Of a DNA stretch of 64,000 bases, positions 1 to 7,864 are shown one piece after another. The translations under genes were made by a program, and so were the position numbers. Below the pieces are notes generated by a model. The model searched no databases and was not told the DNA's origin. It worked only from the letters and a program-made list of their open reading frames with translations. How positions within the stretch are numbered: position 1 is the first letter of the stretch; every line of letters begins with the position of its first letter. The stretch is from contig NZ_JAHCST010000044.1 of assembly GCF_018476525.1 (NCBI RefSeq), forward strand, positions 1 through 64,000, in the 5' to 3' direction. The stretch comes from Acrocarpospora catenulata. GTDB lineage: Bacteria; Actinomycetota; Actinomycetes; Streptosporangiales; Streptosporangiaceae.

Positions 1-8
1 CCCACCCA

Positions 9-95
9 CCCACCCATTTGACCCTGCGGGTCCGGCTCCGGCTTCCGCCGGGGTGGTTGGGTGCCGCTCCTCGCATGGGGGGATTGATTGCCGTG
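9..95 (+). repeat. Left arm of 87-bp perfect inverted repeat
   Basis: Base-by-base comparison shows that 9-95 is the exact reverse complement of 562-648. The arms are 466 bp apart and lie in the two opposed blocks of the repeat array. All other units in the array are diverged, so this pair was copied or gene-converted recently. Confidence 0.9.
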
Positions 96-561
96 CGCGC
101 CCCACCCACCCTTCCGACCCTCCGGGTCCGGGCCCGGCTTCCGCCGGGAGAGTTGGCTGCCGTCCCGACATACGAAGGATTGGTTGCCGGGGAACCCCCA
201 CCCACCCTTGTTCGACCTCCGGTCGGGGGCCCGGCTCCGCCGGGGTGGGCGGTGGCCGTCCAGCACGCGAAAGCCTGATTTCCGTGTGCTCGCACCCACC
301 CTTTCGACCTTCGGTCGGCCCCGCCCCCGCCGGGCAGGCGAAGCCTCGTGTCGATCTTTGGCGCACAGGGGCGGAAGCCGACGGCCCCAGCGGAGCCGGG
401 TCTGCGACCGAAGATCGAACAAGGGTGGGTGGAAGTCCCCCCGGCACTCAAGGTGTCCACACCTCAGGGGAAGGCCCTTTCGTGTGCCGGACGGCAACCG
501 ACCCTCCCGGCGGAGCCGTGGCCAGACCCGAAGGGGTCAAAGCGTGGGTGGGTGGGAGTAC

Positions 562-648
562 CACGGCAATCAATCCCCCCATGCGAGGAGCGGCACCCAA
601 CCACCCCGGCGGAAGCCGGAGCCGGACCCGCAGGGTCAAATGGGTGGG
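562..648 (-). repeat. Right arm of 87-bp perfect inverted repeat
   Basis: This is the partner of the arm at 9-95, with identity over 87 bases. The next base outward (649 versus 8) is the first mismatch. The arm covers nearly one full unit of the array, including its GGCGGAAGCC hairpin and one G-rich boundary. Confidence 0.9.
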
Positions 649-839
649 CGGGCGGGAGTTTCCCGGCAATCAACCTTTGGTGTGCCGGACGGCAACCGAC
701 CTTCCCGGCGGAGCCGGGCCCGGACCCGAAGGGGTCAAAGGGTTGGGTGGGTGGGAGTTCCACGCCAGACGACGGCGAAGCCGGGTTCGAGCGAAGGTCA
801 TCAAGGGTTGGGTGGGACCTCCACGGCAACCATGTGGGC

Positions 840-2576
840 CTACGTGGGATCAGGTGTTGCTACCGGGACGATTTCGGGGGCGCCCATTTGGATGGCGTCG
901 GCTTCCTGGTCGGTGTCCTGTTCCTGGGAGGCTCGTTCGGCTTCCACTCGCTTCGTGTAGTACTCGATCTCGCGTTTGACCTGTTCGCCGTCCCAGCCAA
1001 GCGGGGGCGCCAGGAGTTCGGCGACCTCCTCGGCGACGGCGAGGCCGCGGTGGAAGGTCTCGATGGAGATGTGGGTGCGCCGGGTCAGCACGTCGTTGAG
1101 GTGACGGGCGCCCTCATGGGTGGCCGCGTACACGATCTCCGCGCGCAGGTAGTCGTCGGCCCCGGCCAGCGGATGAGCCAGCGTCGGATCGCCCTCGATC
1201 AGCACCAGCACTTCATCGATCATGGACCCGTACCGCTGGAGCAGATGCTCGATCCGAGCCACATGGAGCCCCGACGACTCCGCCAACCGATACCGAGAGT
1301 TCCACAGCGCCTGATACCCCTCAGCCCCGGCCAGCGGAATGCGATCCGTACAGGACGGAGGAACCCGCAGATCCAGCCCATGCGCGACCGCGTTGACCGC
1401 ATCCGCCGCCATCTTCCGATACGTCGTGAACTTGCCCCCCGCCACCATGACCAGCCCCGGCACCGGATGGGTGACCACATGCTCCCGAGAGAGCTTGGAG
1501 GTCTGCTCCGACTCCCCCTTCAGCAGCGGCCGCAGCCCCGCGTACACCCCTTCGACATCGTCCCTGGTCAAGGGCACCGACAGCACGGCATTGACGTGAT
1601 CGAGCACGTAGTCGATATCCGTCCGGGAAGCCGCCGGATGCGCCTTGTCCAACGTCCACGCGGTATCCGTCGTCCCGATGATCCAGTGCCGCCCCCACGG
1701 AATCACAAAAAGCACCGATTTCTCGGTGCGAAGAATGATCCCGGTAACCGAGTGGATCCGATCCCGAGGCACCAGCAGATGAATCCCCTTGGACGCCTTC
1801 ACATTGATCTGCCCGCGCCCACCCACAAGATCCTGAATATCGTCAGTCCAGACCCCCGTGGCATTCACCACCTGCCGGGCCCGAACATCGAGCTCCACCC
1901 CGGTCTCCAGATCACAGACCCGAACCCCGGTAACCCGCTCCCCTTCCCGAAGAAACCCCACCACCTGCGCCCGAGAAGCCACCTGAGCCCCGTAGGTGGC
2001 TGCCGTCCGCAGCAGAGTCATCACATACCGCGCATCATCCACCTGCGCGTCCCAATACTGCACCGCCCCCGTGAACGCCGCCCGCTTCAACGCCGGCGCC
2101 AGCCGCAACGCCCGCTTCCTGGACAGATGCCGATGCCCCGGCACCCCCCGCGTGAACCCGAGCGAGAACCCCAACGTGTCGTAGAGCACCAGCCCGGCCC
2201 CCACATACGGCCGCTCCCACCCCACATGCGTCAAGGGGAATAGAAACGGAACCGGCCGCACGAGATGCGGCGCGATCCGCTGCAACAACAACGACCGCTC
2301 CTGCAGCGCTTCCCGTACCAGATCGAAGTTGAGCTGCTCCAGATACCGCAACCCCCCATGGATCAACTTCGACGACCGCGACGAGGTCCCCGACGCGAAG
2401 TCCCGCGCCTCCACCAACCCCACCGACAACCCCCGGGTGGCGGCATCGAGCGCGACCCCCGCCCCGACAACCCCACCCCCCACCACAACAACGTCGAACT
2501 CCTGCGACCCCAGCCGCGACAACGCGTCAAACCGCTCCGCCGGCCCCAGCCTCGCCGTCCCCATCCGCGCCGTCAT
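840..2576 (-). CDS. glpD: Glycerol-3-phosphate dehydrogenase (FAD-dependent)
   Basis: GlpD oxidises sn-glycerol 3-phosphate to dihydroxyacetone phosphate at the membrane and passes electrons to the quinone pool. The 578-residue protein has the family's usual length. A Rossmann FAD motif GGGVVGAG lies at residues 33-40, followed by the GlpD hallmark around SSKLIHGGLRYLE (about 67-80), a DAO domain to about residue 390 and a C-terminal DAO_C domain. The start ATG at 2576 is preceded by AAAGGGAG; a second ATG four codons in is an alternative. It appears monocistronic: the array of repeats begins 13 bases after its stop. No glycerol kinase or facilitator gene is adjacent. Confidence 0.93.
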   Translation of the reverse strand: MTARMGTARLGPAERFDALSRLGSQEFDVVVVGGGVVGAGVALDAATRGLSVGLVEARDFASGTSSRSSKLIHGGLRYLEQLNFDLVREALQERSLLLQRIAPHLVRPVPFLFPLTHVGWERPYVGAGLVLYDTLGFSLGFTRGVPGHRHLSRKRALRLAPALKRAAFTGAVQYWDAQVDDARYVMTLLRTAATYGAQVASRAQVVGFLREGERVTGVRVCDLETGVELDVRARQVVNATGVWTDDIQDLVGGRGQINVKASKGIHLLVPRDRIHSVTGIILRTEKSVLFVIPWGRHWIIGTTDTAWTLDKAHPAASRTDIDYVLDHVNAVLSVPLTRDDVEGVYAGLRPLLKGESEQTSKLSREHVVTHPVPGLVMVAGGKFTTYRKMAADAVNAVAHGLDLRVPPSCTDRIPLAGAEGYQALWNSRYRLAESSGLHVARIEHLLQRYGSMIDEVLVLIEGDPTLAHPLAGADDYLRAEIVYAATHEGARHLNDVLTRRTHISIETFHRGLAVAEEVAELLAPPLGWDGEQVKREIEYYTKRVEAERASQEQDTDQEADAIQMGAPEIVPVATPDPT

Positions 2577-2714: not shown

Positions 2715-3470
2715 CTAGAGGTTGTAGCCACCGGCGACCTCGAGGTCCTGCGCGGTGATCCAGCGACCCTCCTCTCCCAGCAGCACCGCGACCACCATGC
2801 CGATGTCGTCGGGTTCACCGACCCTGCCGAGAGCGGTCTTCGCCGCGAGAGCGGGAATCACCTCGGGGAAGCGCTCGAAGGCGTTGTCCGAGATGCGCGT
2901 ACGGGTGGTACCGGGGGACACCGAGTTGACCCGGATACCCCGCTTACTGAACTCCTTGGCCATATAGCGGGTCAGCACCGTCAGACCACCCTTCATGGTG
3001 GCGTAGGCGGAGTACCCGGGTTCAGTAGTTCTGGACACCGAGTTACTGGTCATGTTGACGATCGCGCCGCCGTCGGCCAGCAGTGGCAGCAGGGTCTGGG
3101 TCAGGAAGTACGGCCCCTTGAGCAGAACCCGCATGAGCCTGTCGAACATCTCCTCCGAGGTGTCCTCGAACAACGCGTTCTCCCCGACCCCGGCGTTGTT
3201 GACCAGGAAGTCGAACGTGTCCCGGCCCCACGTTTCCCGAAGCGCCGCGGCGACCGACTCCCGGAAGGCCGGGAAGGTCTCCGACCTGCCGACGTCCAAC
3301 GGCAACGCGACGGCCGTACCGCCCTCCTTCTCGATGGTCGCGACCGTGTCCAGCGCCCCGGACTGATAGGAGTTGTAGGTCAGGATCACCCCTGTCCCAC
3401 GCTTGGCGATCTGAATGGCTGCGCTCTGCCCGATACCGGAGCTGGCCCCGGTGACAATCGCGACTCGCAT
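2715..3470 (-). CDS. Short-chain dehydrogenase/reductase (SDR family)
   Basis: This 251-residue classical SDR oxidises or reduces an unidentified substrate with NAD(P)H. Visible signatures are the cofactor-binding TGASSGIG at residues 7-14, NNAG at 91-94, a Ser around 142-144 and the catalytic YATMK with Tyr156 and Lys160. The NxVSPG motif follows (RVNSVSPG), and the C-terminus has the usual GG-Y-N-L ending. The sequence resembles FabG-like 3-oxoacyl reductases, but nothing nearby fixes the substrate. It is a single gene with its own start at 3470, upstream of and divergent from nagA. Confidence 0.85.
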   Translation of the reverse strand: MRVAIVTGASSGIGQSAAIQIAKRGTGVILTYNSYQSGALDTVATIEKEGGTAVALPLDVGRSETFPAFRESVAAALRETWGRDTFDFLVNNAGVGENALFEDTSEEMFDRLMRVLLKGPYFLTQTLLPLLADGGAIVNMTSNSVSRTTEPGYSAYATMKGGLTVLTRYMAKEFSKRGIRVNSVSPGTTRTRISDNAFERFPEVIPALAAKTALGRVGEPDDIGMVVAVLLGEEGRWITAQDLEVAGGYNL

Positions 3471-4801: not shown

Positions 4802-7800
4802 ATGAGCGACCTCGCCCCCGGCCTGTACGAGCAACTCGTCACCGAAGGACTGGCCCGTGAGCTGATCGCCCACGGCGACCTGGCCCAGCGGCGCCCGCTC
4901 GACCAGATCGAGGCCGCGGACGTACTCACCGCCCACCTGGCCGCACTCACCCGCAGGGCCCTGCGGTCGGTACGCGGCACCGACCCCGAACGACTGGCCG
5001 GCCAGGTCGAACTGGCCAACCGGCTCGCCGCCGTCCTGGGCGAAGTCGCGCAGGACGACCTGGTGGCCGGCTCGCGGGAACTGCTCCTGGCCGTGACGCG
5101 CCGACGTACCCCCACCGGCGAGCCGGTCTACCCGAGGCGCCCGGAGACTCCGCTCGCGGCGAGCGCACTGCTGGTCAACGGGCACGGCCAGCCGAGCGTG
5201 GGCCACGAACTCAGGCGGGAGCTGGCCTCGGCGGACCAGGTCGACCTGTTGTGCGCCTTCGTCCGCTGGTACGGCGTACGCATCCTGGAAGACGACCTGG
5301 CCGAGTTCGTCCAGCGGGGCGGCCGGCTGAGGGTCATCACCACCACTTATCGGGGCGCGACCGAACGCCGGGCGCTGGACCGGCTGGCCGAGCTGGGCGC
5401 CACGGTCAAGATCTCGTACGAGACCAGGACCACCCGCCTGCACGCCAAAGCGTGGCTGTTCCGCAGGGAAACCGGCTTCTCCACCGCGTACGTCGGCTCC
5501 TCGAACCTGTCCAAGTCCGCTCTGATCGACGGGCTGGAGTGGAACGTCCGCCTGTCGGCCGTGGAGCAGCCGCACCTGCTGGACACCTTCGCGGCCACCT
5601 TCGAGGAGTACTGGGGCGACCCGGCCTTCGAGGACTACGATCCCGCTTCAGCACAGGACCGCGCCCGCCTGGAGCGCGCGCTGGAGCTGGAAGGCGCGGG
5701 GACACGCGACCTGCCGCTGACCATCGCCTCGGTGGACGTGAACCCGTACGGCTACCAGAGCGAGGTCCTGGCCGAGCTCACCGCCGAACGCGAGATCCAC
5801 GACCGGTGGCGCAACCTGGTGGTGATGGCCACCGGAACCGGCAAAACGGTGGTCTCCGCGCTGGACTACCGCGAGCTGCGCGCGGCCGGCGAGGTCGACT
5901 CGCTGCTCTTCGTGGCGCACCGCCAGGAGATCCTCACCCAGAGCCAGGCCACCTTCCGCCAGGCGCTCCGCGACGGCGCCTTCGGCGAGCTGTACGCCGG
6001 CGGGCGGAAACCCGAGCAGTGGCGGCACGTGTTCGCCTCCATCCAGTCGCTGCACCGCCTCGACCTGGAGTTACTCGACCCTGCCGCGTTCGACATGGTG
6101 ATCGTGGACGAGTTCCACCACGCCGAGGCGGCCATGTACACCCGCCTGCTGGGCCACCTCACGCCACGCGTGCTGCTGGGTCTGACCGCCACCCCAGAAC
6201 GTACGGACGGCCAGGACGTCAAGCACTGGTTCGGCGGCCGGATCGCGGTCGAGCTACGCCTGTGGGAGGCCATCGAACGGCAGCTACTGGCGCCGTTCCA
6301 GTACTTCGGCGTACATGACGGGGTGGACCTGTCAGCTGTGCCGTGGAAACGCGGTCAGGGCTACGACCTGACGCGTCTCAGTAACGTGTTCACCGGCAAC
6401 GACGCCCGCGTCCGGCTGGTCCTGGAGACACTGCAGCGCAAGATCGGCGATCTCGGCCGGATGCGCGCGCTGGGCTTCTGCGTCAGCGTCGACCACGCCG
6501 AGTACATGGCCCAGCGTTTCACCGAAGCGGGCATCCCGGCCCTCGCCATCACCTCCCGCACCCCGCAGGCCGACCGGGAGGCAGGGCTCCGGAGACTCCG
6601 GTCGCGCGAGGTCGCCGTCGTCTTCGCCGTGGACCTGTTCAACGAGGGTGTCGACATCCCCAGCATCGACACCGTGCTCTTCCTGCGCCCCACGGACAGC
6701 GCCACCGTCTTCCTCCAGCAACTCGGGCGCGGGCTGCGCCTGGACGACGGCAAGGCCTGCCTCACCGTGCTGGATTTCATCGGCAACCAGCACCGCCAGT
6801 TCCGCTTCGACCGCCGCTACCGCGCGCTGACCGGCGCCAGCCGTACCGGGGTCGCCCGCGAGGTGGAAGCGGGCTTTCCCACCCTGCCGCCCGGCTGCCA
6901 CATCGACCTGGACCGCGAGGTCTCGCGGCTGGTGCTGCACAACATCCGCCAGACGCTGAACCTGCGCTGGCCCGACCTGGCCGCCGAACTCGCCGCGCTG
7001 CCCGCGCCGACCACGCTGGCCGCCTTCCTCGAAGAGACCGGGCTGGAGCTGGAGGACCTCTACCGCCGCCGCCATGGATGGGCCGCGCTGCGGCGGGCGG
7101 CGGGCAGAGGCCCTGCGGCGGGGCCGTTGGACGAGAAGATCGGCAAGGCGCTCGGCCGCATGCTCCACATCGACGACCCCGACCGGCTGGCTTTCCTGCG
7201 CCGCCTGAGCAGCGGGGAATCAGTTCGTGAGCAGCGGTTGCTCGCGATGCTCGATGTCGCCCTCTGGGGTGGCACCCAGCCCGCCTCCACGGCGGAGGAG
7301 CGGCTGGCGGAGCTACTGGCCCACCGGGACAGGGTGAGTGAACTCCTGGAACTGGCCGATCTGCTCGGCGAGCGCCGCCATCGCGTGACGCATCCGCTGG
7401 CGGGAGAGGTTCCCCTGCACATCCATGCCACTTACAGCAAGAACGAGGCATTGGCCGCTTTCGGCGTGGACAAACCCGCCCACATGCGCGAAGGCGTGAA
7501 ATGGGTGCCCGAGGCGAACGCCGACCTGTTCTTCGTGACGATCGACAAGTCCGTGTCGCTCTTCTCGCCTACGACGATGTACCACGATCGGGCCATCACC
7601 CCGAGCCTGTTTCAGTGGGAGTCCCAGTCCACGTTGCGTCGGAGCAATCCCACGGCACAGCGCTACCAGTCCGGACAGTCCAGCGTCCACCTGTTCGTCA
7701 GGGAGAACAAGCGCGATGAAGGGCTGGGTGCGCCGCCGTACCTGTACGCCGGGCCGATGACCTACGAGCACTGCGAAGGCGACCGGCCGGTGCGGTTCCG

Positions 7801-7864
7801 CTGGCGCCTGGAGCACTCGCTCCCGCTGGACGTGTTCCACTACGCCAAGGTCACGGCGGGCTGA
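4802..7864 (+). CDS. PLD-like nuclease / SF2 helicase / DUF3427 protein
   Basis: This large cytosolic enzyme (1,020 residues from ATG 4802; TTG at 4793 is the alternative) combines three parts. Near residue 215 is a phospholipase-D-type half site, HAKAW followed by GSSN; the Asp of the HKD motif is not in the usual place. An SF2 helicase core follows: Walker A MATGTGKT (about 342), DEFH (about 435), LTATPERTDG (about 460) and motif VI QLGRGLRLDDGK (about 640). The C-terminus matches the DUF3427 style (LFVRENKRD, YAGPMTYEHCEGDRPVRFRW). Proteins of this architecture are annotated as restriction-like helicases and occur in defence islands; activity here is inferred. It starts 22 bases after nagA and its 3' end overlaps the convergent SnoaL-like gene by 14 bases. 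Confidence 0.85.
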   Translation: MSDLAPGLYEQLVTEGLARELIAHGDLAQRRPLDQIEAADVLTAHLAALTRRALRSVRGTDPERLAGQVELANRLAAVLGEVAQDDLVAGSRELLLAVTRRRTPTGEPVYPRRPETPLAASALLVNGHGQPSVGHELRRELASADQVDLLCAFVRWYGVRILEDDLAEFVQRGGRLRVITTTYRGATERRALDRLAELGATVKISYETRTTRLHAKAWLFRRETGFSTAYVGSSNLSKSALIDGLEWNVRLSAVEQPHLLDTFAATFEEYWGDPAFEDYDPASAQDRARLERALELEGAGTRDLPLTIASVDVNPYGYQSEVLAELTAEREIHDRWRNLVVMATGTGKTVVSALDYRELRAAGEVDSLLFVAHRQEILTQSQATFRQALRDGAFGELYAGGRKPEQWRHVFASIQSLHRLDLELLDPAAFDMVIVDEFHHAEAAMYTRLLGHLTPRVLLGLTATPERTDGQDVKHWFGGRIAVELRLWEAIERQLLAPFQYFGVHDGVDLSAVPWKRGQGYDLTRLSNVFTGNDARVRLVLETLQRKIGDLGRMRALGFCVSVDHAEYMAQRFTEAGIPALAITSRTPQADREAGLRRLRSREVAVVFAVDLFNEGVDIPSIDTVLFLRPTDSATVFLQQLGRGLRLDDGKACLTVLDFIGNQHRQFRFDRRYRALTGASRTGVAREVEAGFPTLPPGCHIDLDREVSRLVLHNIRQTLNLRWPDLAAELAALPAPTTLAAFLEETGLELEDLYRRRHGWAALRRAAGRGPAAGPLDEKIGKALGRMLHIDDPDRLAFLRRLSSGESVREQRLLAMLDVALWGGTQPASTAEERLAELLAHRDRVSELLELADLLGERRHRVTHPLAGEVPLHIHATYSKNEALAAFGVDKPAHMREGVKWVPEANADLFFVTIDKSVSLFSPTTMYHDRAITPSLFQWESQSTLRRSNPTAQRYQSGQSSVHLFVRENKRDEGLGAPPYLYAGPMTYEHCEGDRPVRFRWRLEHSLPLDVFHYAKVTAG

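What the first reader, a model, noticed from the sequence alone, without database searches (positions are those of the whole stretch)
1..826. Non-coding array of opposed ~100-bp repeats next to glpD
Visible directly: at least four units in each orientation, meeting head-on near 350-360. Each carries two short hairpins and a GGGTGGGTGGG boundary. I know no named family with this design in actinobacteria. Opposed blocks suggest a structured RNA or a recombination-generated element rather than a simple minisatellite.
Basis: seen in the sequence. Interest (0 to 1): 0.7.

Follow-up and report, generated by a model that had tools for sequence, protein, structure and literature searches.

The report
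Genus-specific intergenic hairpin repeats in Acrocarpospora
The odd repeat block beside a glycerol-metabolism gene belongs to a large family of short hairpin-plus-G-rich DNA elements, seen in the collections searched only in the bacterial genus Acrocarpospora, that often sit right behind genes and may shape how their messages end.

Summary
Window 1-832 carries four minus and five plus units of ~95-100 bp (one of each short or degenerate), heads together near 340-350. It is one locus of a dispersed family: at least 137 model matches in this genome. The tail motif is in 5 of 5 genus genomes; an exact-pattern scan of 84,980 species gave 50 stretches, all Acrocarpospora. A unit is a variable stem-loop part, an A-rich linker and a constant tail GGGTGGGTGGGAGnnCCAC, usually with a fourth G-run (102 of 128). 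None of 81 clusters lay inside a called gene. Tails lie within 60 nt of a gene's 3' end 28 times, of a 5' end once; 33 of 78 tails face 5' ends, mostly further off. By synteny the block lies between convergent glpD and a beta-propeller gene. One unit-bearing insertion has an empty site in four relatives. Best reading: a new REP/BIME-like family acting mainly at transcript 3' ends; the mechanism is inferred. Not filed as REP: no GTAG/CGTC tag, and the five Y1 transposases tested (of 11 matches) are IS200/IS605.

The parts
1..91 (-). repeat unit (minus); cut by the contig end
   Evidence: profile hit
101..187 (-). repeat unit (minus)
   Evidence: profile hit
197..281 (-). repeat unit (minus)
   Evidence: profile hit
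286..340 (-). short fourth minus unit, half of the head-to-head module; bounds approximate
   Evidence: below the profile threshold; aligned with three other loci
351..438 (+). repeat unit (plus), other half of the head-to-head module
   Evidence: profile hit
286..440 (.). head-to-head module that recurs at C33, C18 and C95 (90%, 81%, 82% identity)
   Evidence: BLAST and alignment
477..561 (+). repeat unit (plus)
   Evidence: profile hit
566..661 (+). repeat unit (plus)
   Evidence: profile hit
666..761 (+). repeat unit (plus); best copy in the window
   Evidence: profile hit 79.8 bits; near-identical copy (99%) at C176
768..832 (+). degenerate fifth plus unit; its tail lies 15 nt from the glpD stop codon
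   Evidence: repeat families D3 and D5; distance
840..2576 (-). glpD (glycerol-3-phosphate dehydrogenase-like), neighbour whose 3' end faces the block
   Evidence: ORF; Pfam DAO and DAO_C; best NCBIfam model NF008899 at 347.3 bits, just under its cut-off of 360

Best explanation
SHOWN: window 1-832 is one locus of a dispersed intergenic repeat family present in all five held Acrocarpospora genomes. A unit has a variable GC-rich stem-loop part (two stems in this species), an A-rich linker and a constant tail GGG-n-GGGTGGGTGGGAGnnCCAC. Units occur singly, as tandem copies and as head-to-head modules; their number at a site differs between species. INFERRED: like REP/BIME elements of other phyla they act mainly as 3'-end elements of the neighbouring transcript. 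In the sense of the gene whose stop codon the tail abuts, the RNA reads stop - (0-60 nt) - GUGGnnCUCCCACCCACCCnnCCCUUUG - stem-loop: a C-rich, G-poor segment (suited to Rho loading) made from a G4-capable template strand, followed by a hairpin. Most likely it promotes pausing or termination behind the gene and leaves a hairpin-protected 3' end; in convergent pairs, opposed blocks would shield each gene from the other's read-through. Spread is probably by duplication and insertion by an unidentified activity.
For: Copy number and genus restriction. Constant tail with changing stem-loops across species. Stems. Fourth G-run within 7 nt upstream in 102 of 128 tails (displaced control 52), 92 of them with a 1-2-nt loop of varying sequence. 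None of 81 clusters inside a called gene. Tails within 60 nt of a 3' end 28 times, of a 5' end once; heads at the equivalent distance from a 3' end 5 times if a unit is taken as 100 nt, flip test P = 7e-5. Sense sequences after the stop codon (27 of 28 printed). Outward tails in 9 of 10 switches. Insertion with an empty site in four relatives. Convergent partner of glpD at a unit-bearing contig end.
Against: 33 of 78 outermost tails face a gene's 5' end, and facing direction alone does not differ between tails and heads (P = 0.36). Convergent gaps are 10 of 44 against 49 of 309 in the background (no test run). On C43 the unit nearest the beta-propeller gene points its head, not its tail, at that gene, behind a native terminator-like hairpin; such hairpins also precede some tails. 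Energies of single units are ordinary. The covariation control with a -1 slide scores as high as the structure (0.148 against 0.133). No expression data. Some clusters are orthologous pairs of two close species, so counts are not all independent.
Confidence: 0.5

Rival explanations
1. Selfish miniature mobile element: stem-loops and constant tail are signals for a transposition or copying enzyme, and closeness to stop codons reflects where insertion is harmless or targeted, with no host function.
For: Copy-number differences at orthologous sites; an insertion with an empty site in four relatives; copied head-to-head modules; heterogeneous neighbours; genus restriction.
Against: No clear target-site duplication (two sites read); no partner enzyme found; Y1 genes tested are IS200/IS605. 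Tail rather than head next to stop codons (28 against 5) needs a directional target preference.
Confidence: 0.35
2. DNA-level site: the four G-runs form a quadruplex, or bind a nucleoid or topoisomerase protein, at supercoil-rich gene ends, with no RNA-level role.
For: Four G-runs with varying loops in most tails; strictly intergenic place.
Against: Stem-loops accompany the tail in most units; the region is G-rich in any case (displaced control 52 of 128). Not tested biochemically.
Confidence: 0.08
3. A riboswitch-derived or stand-alone structured RNA, for example a decayed SAM-IV aptamer.
For: cmscan aligns window 650-748 to the whole SAM-IV model at 26.5 bits.
Against: Below the cut-off of 38 bits; only 1 of 8 unit-bearing sources matches it, and that is a 99% identical copy of the same unit.
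Confidence: 0.03
4. Assembly artefact at a contig end.
For: The window begins at base 1 of a contig; at least 22 of 181 contigs have a tail match starting in their first 60 bases (my count from the list). N-runs interrupt arrays in relatives.
Against: Units occur inside long contigs with called genes on both sides (44 of 81 clusters) and in five assemblies. Only the exact copy number here is in doubt.
Confidence: 0.02

Closest known systems
REP / BIME elements, GTAG and CGTC super-families (PMC3733652: passages and section 15 read)
   Same: High-copy, intergenic, stem-loop repeats, often clustered and in inverted pairs, with the stem sequence varying while pairing stays, and often next to the 3' ends of genes.
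   Different: Units are ~95-100 bp rather than 20-40 bp; no GTAG or CGTC tag in the consensus; a constant tail of G-runs instead; no REP transposase among the proteins tested; the word Actinobacteria does not occur in that paper.
REP candidates of RepRanger (PMC12306157: passages read)
   Same: That 2025 survey counts REP candidates in three Actinomycetota species and discusses REPs within 15 nt of stop codons.
   Different: Its definition is broad (palindromes that are not terminators); no Streptosporangium-type genus and no G-quadruplex is mentioned in its text.
Quadruplex-forming GGGNATC repeats of Xanthomonas and Nostoc (PMC4692102: abstract and one section read)
   Same: Four G-runs, dispersed, intergenic, close to stop codons.
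   Different: Simple 7-nt repeats without stem-loops; at stop codons the G-rich side is on the coding strand, here it is on the template strand.
Mycobacterial interspersed repetitive units (recalled; search listing only)
   Same: Actinobacterial, intergenic, tandem units of similar length (recalled).
   Different: No sequence comparison was made; stem-loop plus G-run design is not recalled for them.

Membership tests
REP / BIME | many copies, dispersed, intergenic | tested here: met
REP / BIME | short stem-loop core with compensating stem changes | tested here: met
   covariation support moderate because of mixed registers
REP / BIME | GTAG or CGTC tag at one end | tested here: not met
   read from the unit alignments; tag definition from PMC3733652
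REP / BIME | association with a REP-associated tyrosine transposase | tested here: not met
   11 Y1_Tnp matches in 4 of 5 genomes; 5 tested, all over the IS200/IS605 cut-off and under the REP-transposase cut-off; nearest unit 1.4 kb or more away in the stretches fetched. Six matches not tested.
REP / BIME | clusters with inverted copies | tested here: met
   10 of 81 clusters switch orientation; head-to-head module at four loci
MITE | terminal inverted repeats and target-site duplication | tested here: inconclusive
   two insertion sites aligned, no clear duplication; ends of the element not sharply defined
GGGNATC quadruplex repeats | tandem 7-nt unit | tested here: not met
   unit sequence
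SAM-IV riboswitch | score over Rfam's gathering cut-off | tested here: not met
   26.5 against 38 bits
Mycobacterial interspersed repetitive units | sequence or place match to MIRU | not tested
   recalled only
Quadruplex element | folds into a G-quadruplex | not testable with these tools
   sequence motif only

The most novel reading that the evidence does not exclude
A portable transcript-end cassette: a constant quadruplex-capable tail (G-rich template, C-rich Rho-loading RNA in the sense) carries interchangeable stem-loops and has spread through one actinobacterial genus by an unknown activity that is not a REP transposase, so that scores of genes per genome end in the same module.
Probability: 0.2. 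Interest if true: 0.72.

Novelty: new variant of a known kind. Interest (0 to 1): 0.48.

Why it matters
REP-like families are best described in Proteobacteria and a few other phyla. This family shows the same habits (behind genes, clustered, inverted) with a different anatomy: a tail of G-runs that stays fixed while the stem-loop changes between species. If the tail acts at transcript ends, each genome is a natural series of about a hundred insertions for testing how a template quadruplex or a C-rich RNA affects termination in high-GC bacteria. It also accounts for many contig breaks in these draft genomes.

Tried and rejected
REP-transposase link: Y1_Tnp matches in 4 of 5 genomes, but the five proteins tested are IS200/IS605, two beside ORFs that look like TnpB (recalled motif). 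Units in the stretches fetched around them are absent or 1.4 kb or more away. Rejected, with six matches untested.

Enrichment between convergent genes: 10 of 44 flanked clusters against 49 of 309 background gaps; not claimed. Stand-alone RNA family: only the weak SAM-IV match. Coding repeat: ORFs run through the block, but my gene caller calls none over any cluster. Folding energy: negative. Empty sites between A. pleiomorpha and A. macrocephala: the four orthologous sites found carry units in both, so they show only copy-number change; most other clusters had no orthologous stretch among those fetched, which says nothing about empty sites. C97 solo unit: its flanks map to different contigs in the four relatives, so no empty site could be read. 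Papers: searches (Acrocarpospora with repeat; quadruplex, termination, Rho, Actinobacteria) gave nothing on this family; one search gave nothing used.

Limits of the counts. Gene calls are from my own codon-model caller (72 genes over 89% of the window), not Prodigal. Clusters rest on tails with up to two mismatches, of which about a tenth may be chance by the control. 37 of 81 clusters lack a gene on one side and count only on the other. Some clusters are orthologous pairs. Alignment A1 holds 55 of the 62 units; I left out seven short or odd ones. The neighbour scan used 78 of the 84 proteins listed (one duplicate and five others left out), and one search shows only the first 25 of 118 families. 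In one search one of 28 rows (L083) came out empty because the script ran off the contig start. BLAST and model searches scored only 40 and 150 candidates per genome, so those counts are lower bounds.

Full report
OBSERVATION. The block 1-832 holds units of 96-100 bp in two opposed orientations. An iterated profile gives three minus and four plus units in the window and 73 units in the window plus 20 own-genome stretches; a short fourth minus unit and a degenerate fifth plus unit complete the block.

FAMILY. The block has 129 BLAST matches in its own 10.29-Mb, 181-contig genome (40 of 217 candidates scored, and one place can match on both strands). A covariance model of 55 units gives 137 matches there and 3, 26, 23 and 18 in G002, G003, G004 and G001 (150 candidates scored per genome, so lower bounds). 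The tail GGGTGGGTGGGAGnnCCAC with up to two mismatches occurs 120, 31, 140, 69 and 106 times in G000, G002, G003, G004 and G001, against 14, 2, 18, 5 and 10 for the reversed pattern.

DISTRIBUTION. A strict exact pattern was found in 3 of 297 genomes of the family, all three in this genus, and missed two of the five genus members. A looser exact pattern was found in 5 of 5 genus genomes. In a collection of 84,980 species it was found in 50 stretches, all from Acrocarpospora corrugata, macrocephala, pleiomorpha and phusangensis (the window's own genome may be left out there). Exact patterns could miss diverged relatives elsewhere; phage and plasmid collections were not searched.

ANATOMY. In the window's species the unit reads about CGGCAACCGACC-nTCCCGGCGGAGCCGGG-yCCGGACCCGGAGGGTC-aAaAGGGTGGGTGGGTGGGAGTtCCaCGGCAACC. 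In the other species the stem-loop differs (CGGGCGGAGCCCG, GGGGCGGAGCCCC, GAGCGCCAGCTC, GCCGCCGCGCAGCGGC; some, such as GAGCGCGAGCG, form no simple stem by eye), while the linker and tail stay. The tail was the search key, so its constancy there is partly by construction; one search allows mismatches. In the stem-2 region 39 of 55 units have a stem of at least 5 bp against 10.6% of shuffles. On the alignment, 18 cells have changes on both sides against 6.8 in shuffles, none of 500 reaching it; but a -1 slide scores as high (0.148 against 0.133, with 53.2% against 82.5% of cells paired), because the GACCC/GGGTC and CGACC/GGTCG registers are mixed. A fourth G-run lies within 7 nt upstream in 102 of 128 tails, 92 of them with a 1-2-nt loop of changing sequence; the displaced control gives 52. 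That fits selection for four G-runs, in a region that is G-rich anyway.

PLACE. In 81 non-redundant clusters none falls inside a called gene. Of 78 outermost tails with a neighbour, 45 face a gene's 3' end and 33 a 5' end; heads split 23 and 24, so direction alone shows no bias (P = 0.36). Distance does: 28 tails lie within 60 nt of a 3' end and one within 60 nt of a 5' end. Taking a unit as 100 nt, heads at the equivalent distance from a 3' end number 5 (flip test P = 7e-5). Avoidance of promoter regions may explain part of the 3'/5' contrast, but not the tail/head contrast. The sequences after the stop codon read stop - n - GTGGnnCTCCCACCCACCC..., some with a native terminator-like hairpin in between. 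Orientation switches are minus-then-plus in 9 of 10 cases. Convergent gaps are not clearly enriched (10 of 44 against 49 of 309). Neighbours are heterogeneous: 118 Pfam families among 78 proteins, the commonest in 3.

THE WINDOW LOCUS. glpD ends 15 nt from the nearest tail. In relatives a convergent gene follows glpD: after about 17 nt in corrugata, 130 in phusangensis, 420 in macrocephala and 2.5 kb in pleiomorpha (from the coordinates). In macrocephala that gap holds, by eye, a different block of ~100-bp repeats ending in GGGCGGGCGGGAG. The ortholog of the convergent gene in the window's genome, a beta-propeller protein, lies on the 3.3-kb contig C43 with its 3' end at ~243, and C43:1-243 carries one full unit and a second tail. 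So the block most likely fills the gap between the two convergent genes, broken by the assembly. On the C43 side a native terminator-like hairpin comes first and the nearest unit points its head to the gene, so that flank does not follow the tail-to-stop pattern.

SPREAD. At C89, two genes 9 nt apart in all four relatives are separated by 172 more bases in the window's genome; the insert holds one unit, its tail 36 nt after the stop codon, and a second, unrelated dispersed element. At C13 a unit lies in a gap of 205 nt that is about 34 nt in corrugata, though about 300 in macrocephala. Between A. macrocephala and A. pleiomorpha the four orthologous sites found carry units in both, 3 against 1 and 1 against 2 at two of them (N-runs limit the second). 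The head-to-head junction 286-440 recurs at C33, C18 and C95, so dimers are copied as modules. No clear target-site duplication was seen and no partner enzyme found; of 11 Y1_Tnp matches the five tested are IS200/IS605.

MECHANISM. Position, strand and structure are shown; function is inferred. A C-rich, G-poor RNA right after the stop codon, a four-G-run template strand and a downstream stem-loop suit pausing or termination and 3'-end protection. REPs of other phyla also lie next to 3' ends (PMC3733652, section 15), and REPs within 15 nt of a stop codon are reported to stall ribosomes (PMC12306157, passages). Against it stand the 33 tails facing 5' ends, native hairpins at some sites and the lack of expression data. 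A selfish element tolerated behind genes is the main rival.

COMPARISON. It works like a REP/BIME family but lacks the GTAG/CGTC tag and, as far as tested, the REP transposase, so it is not filed as one. A 2025 survey counts broad REP candidates in three Actinomycetota (PMC12306157, passages), so REP-like palindromes in the phylum are not new as such. The quadruplex repeats of Xanthomonas and Nostoc (PMC4692102, abstract and one section) lie near stop codons but are simple 7-nt repeats with the G-rich side on the coding strand. The listings show no paper on this family; the library holds open-licence papers only.

Noticed in passing
L016 10459-10523 (own genome C89): A second dispersed element of ~60 bp (GGTGAGTTACCTGCTCGGAGGCTATGCGG...) inside the 172-bp insert; one search lists dozens of matches across the genus, most in A. 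pleiomorpha and A. macrocephala. Rfam gives nothing for it; only four distinct copies lie in the loci held.
   Followed up: partly
L171 ~7450-7850 (A. macrocephala, downstream of glpD): A different block of ~100-bp repeats ending in GGGCGGGCGGGAG at the orthologous gap, read by eye.
   Followed up: no
L039 692-767 (own genome C105): 6C RNA, 61.6 bits over the cut-off of 47.
   Followed up: no
L039 171-338, minus strand (own genome C105): A weak Ms1 small-RNA match (33.8 bits, cut-off 162) next to a repeat unit at the contig end; A. macrocephala has units beside the homologous stretch.
   Followed up: no
window 2715-3470: A short-chain dehydrogenase gene between glpD and the next gene; its best matches in the relatives lie on other contigs, while the flanking genes share a contig.
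   Followed up: no
L028 4540-4603 (own genome C97): A solo unit at a synteny break: its two flanks match different contigs in each of the four relatives.
   Followed up: partly
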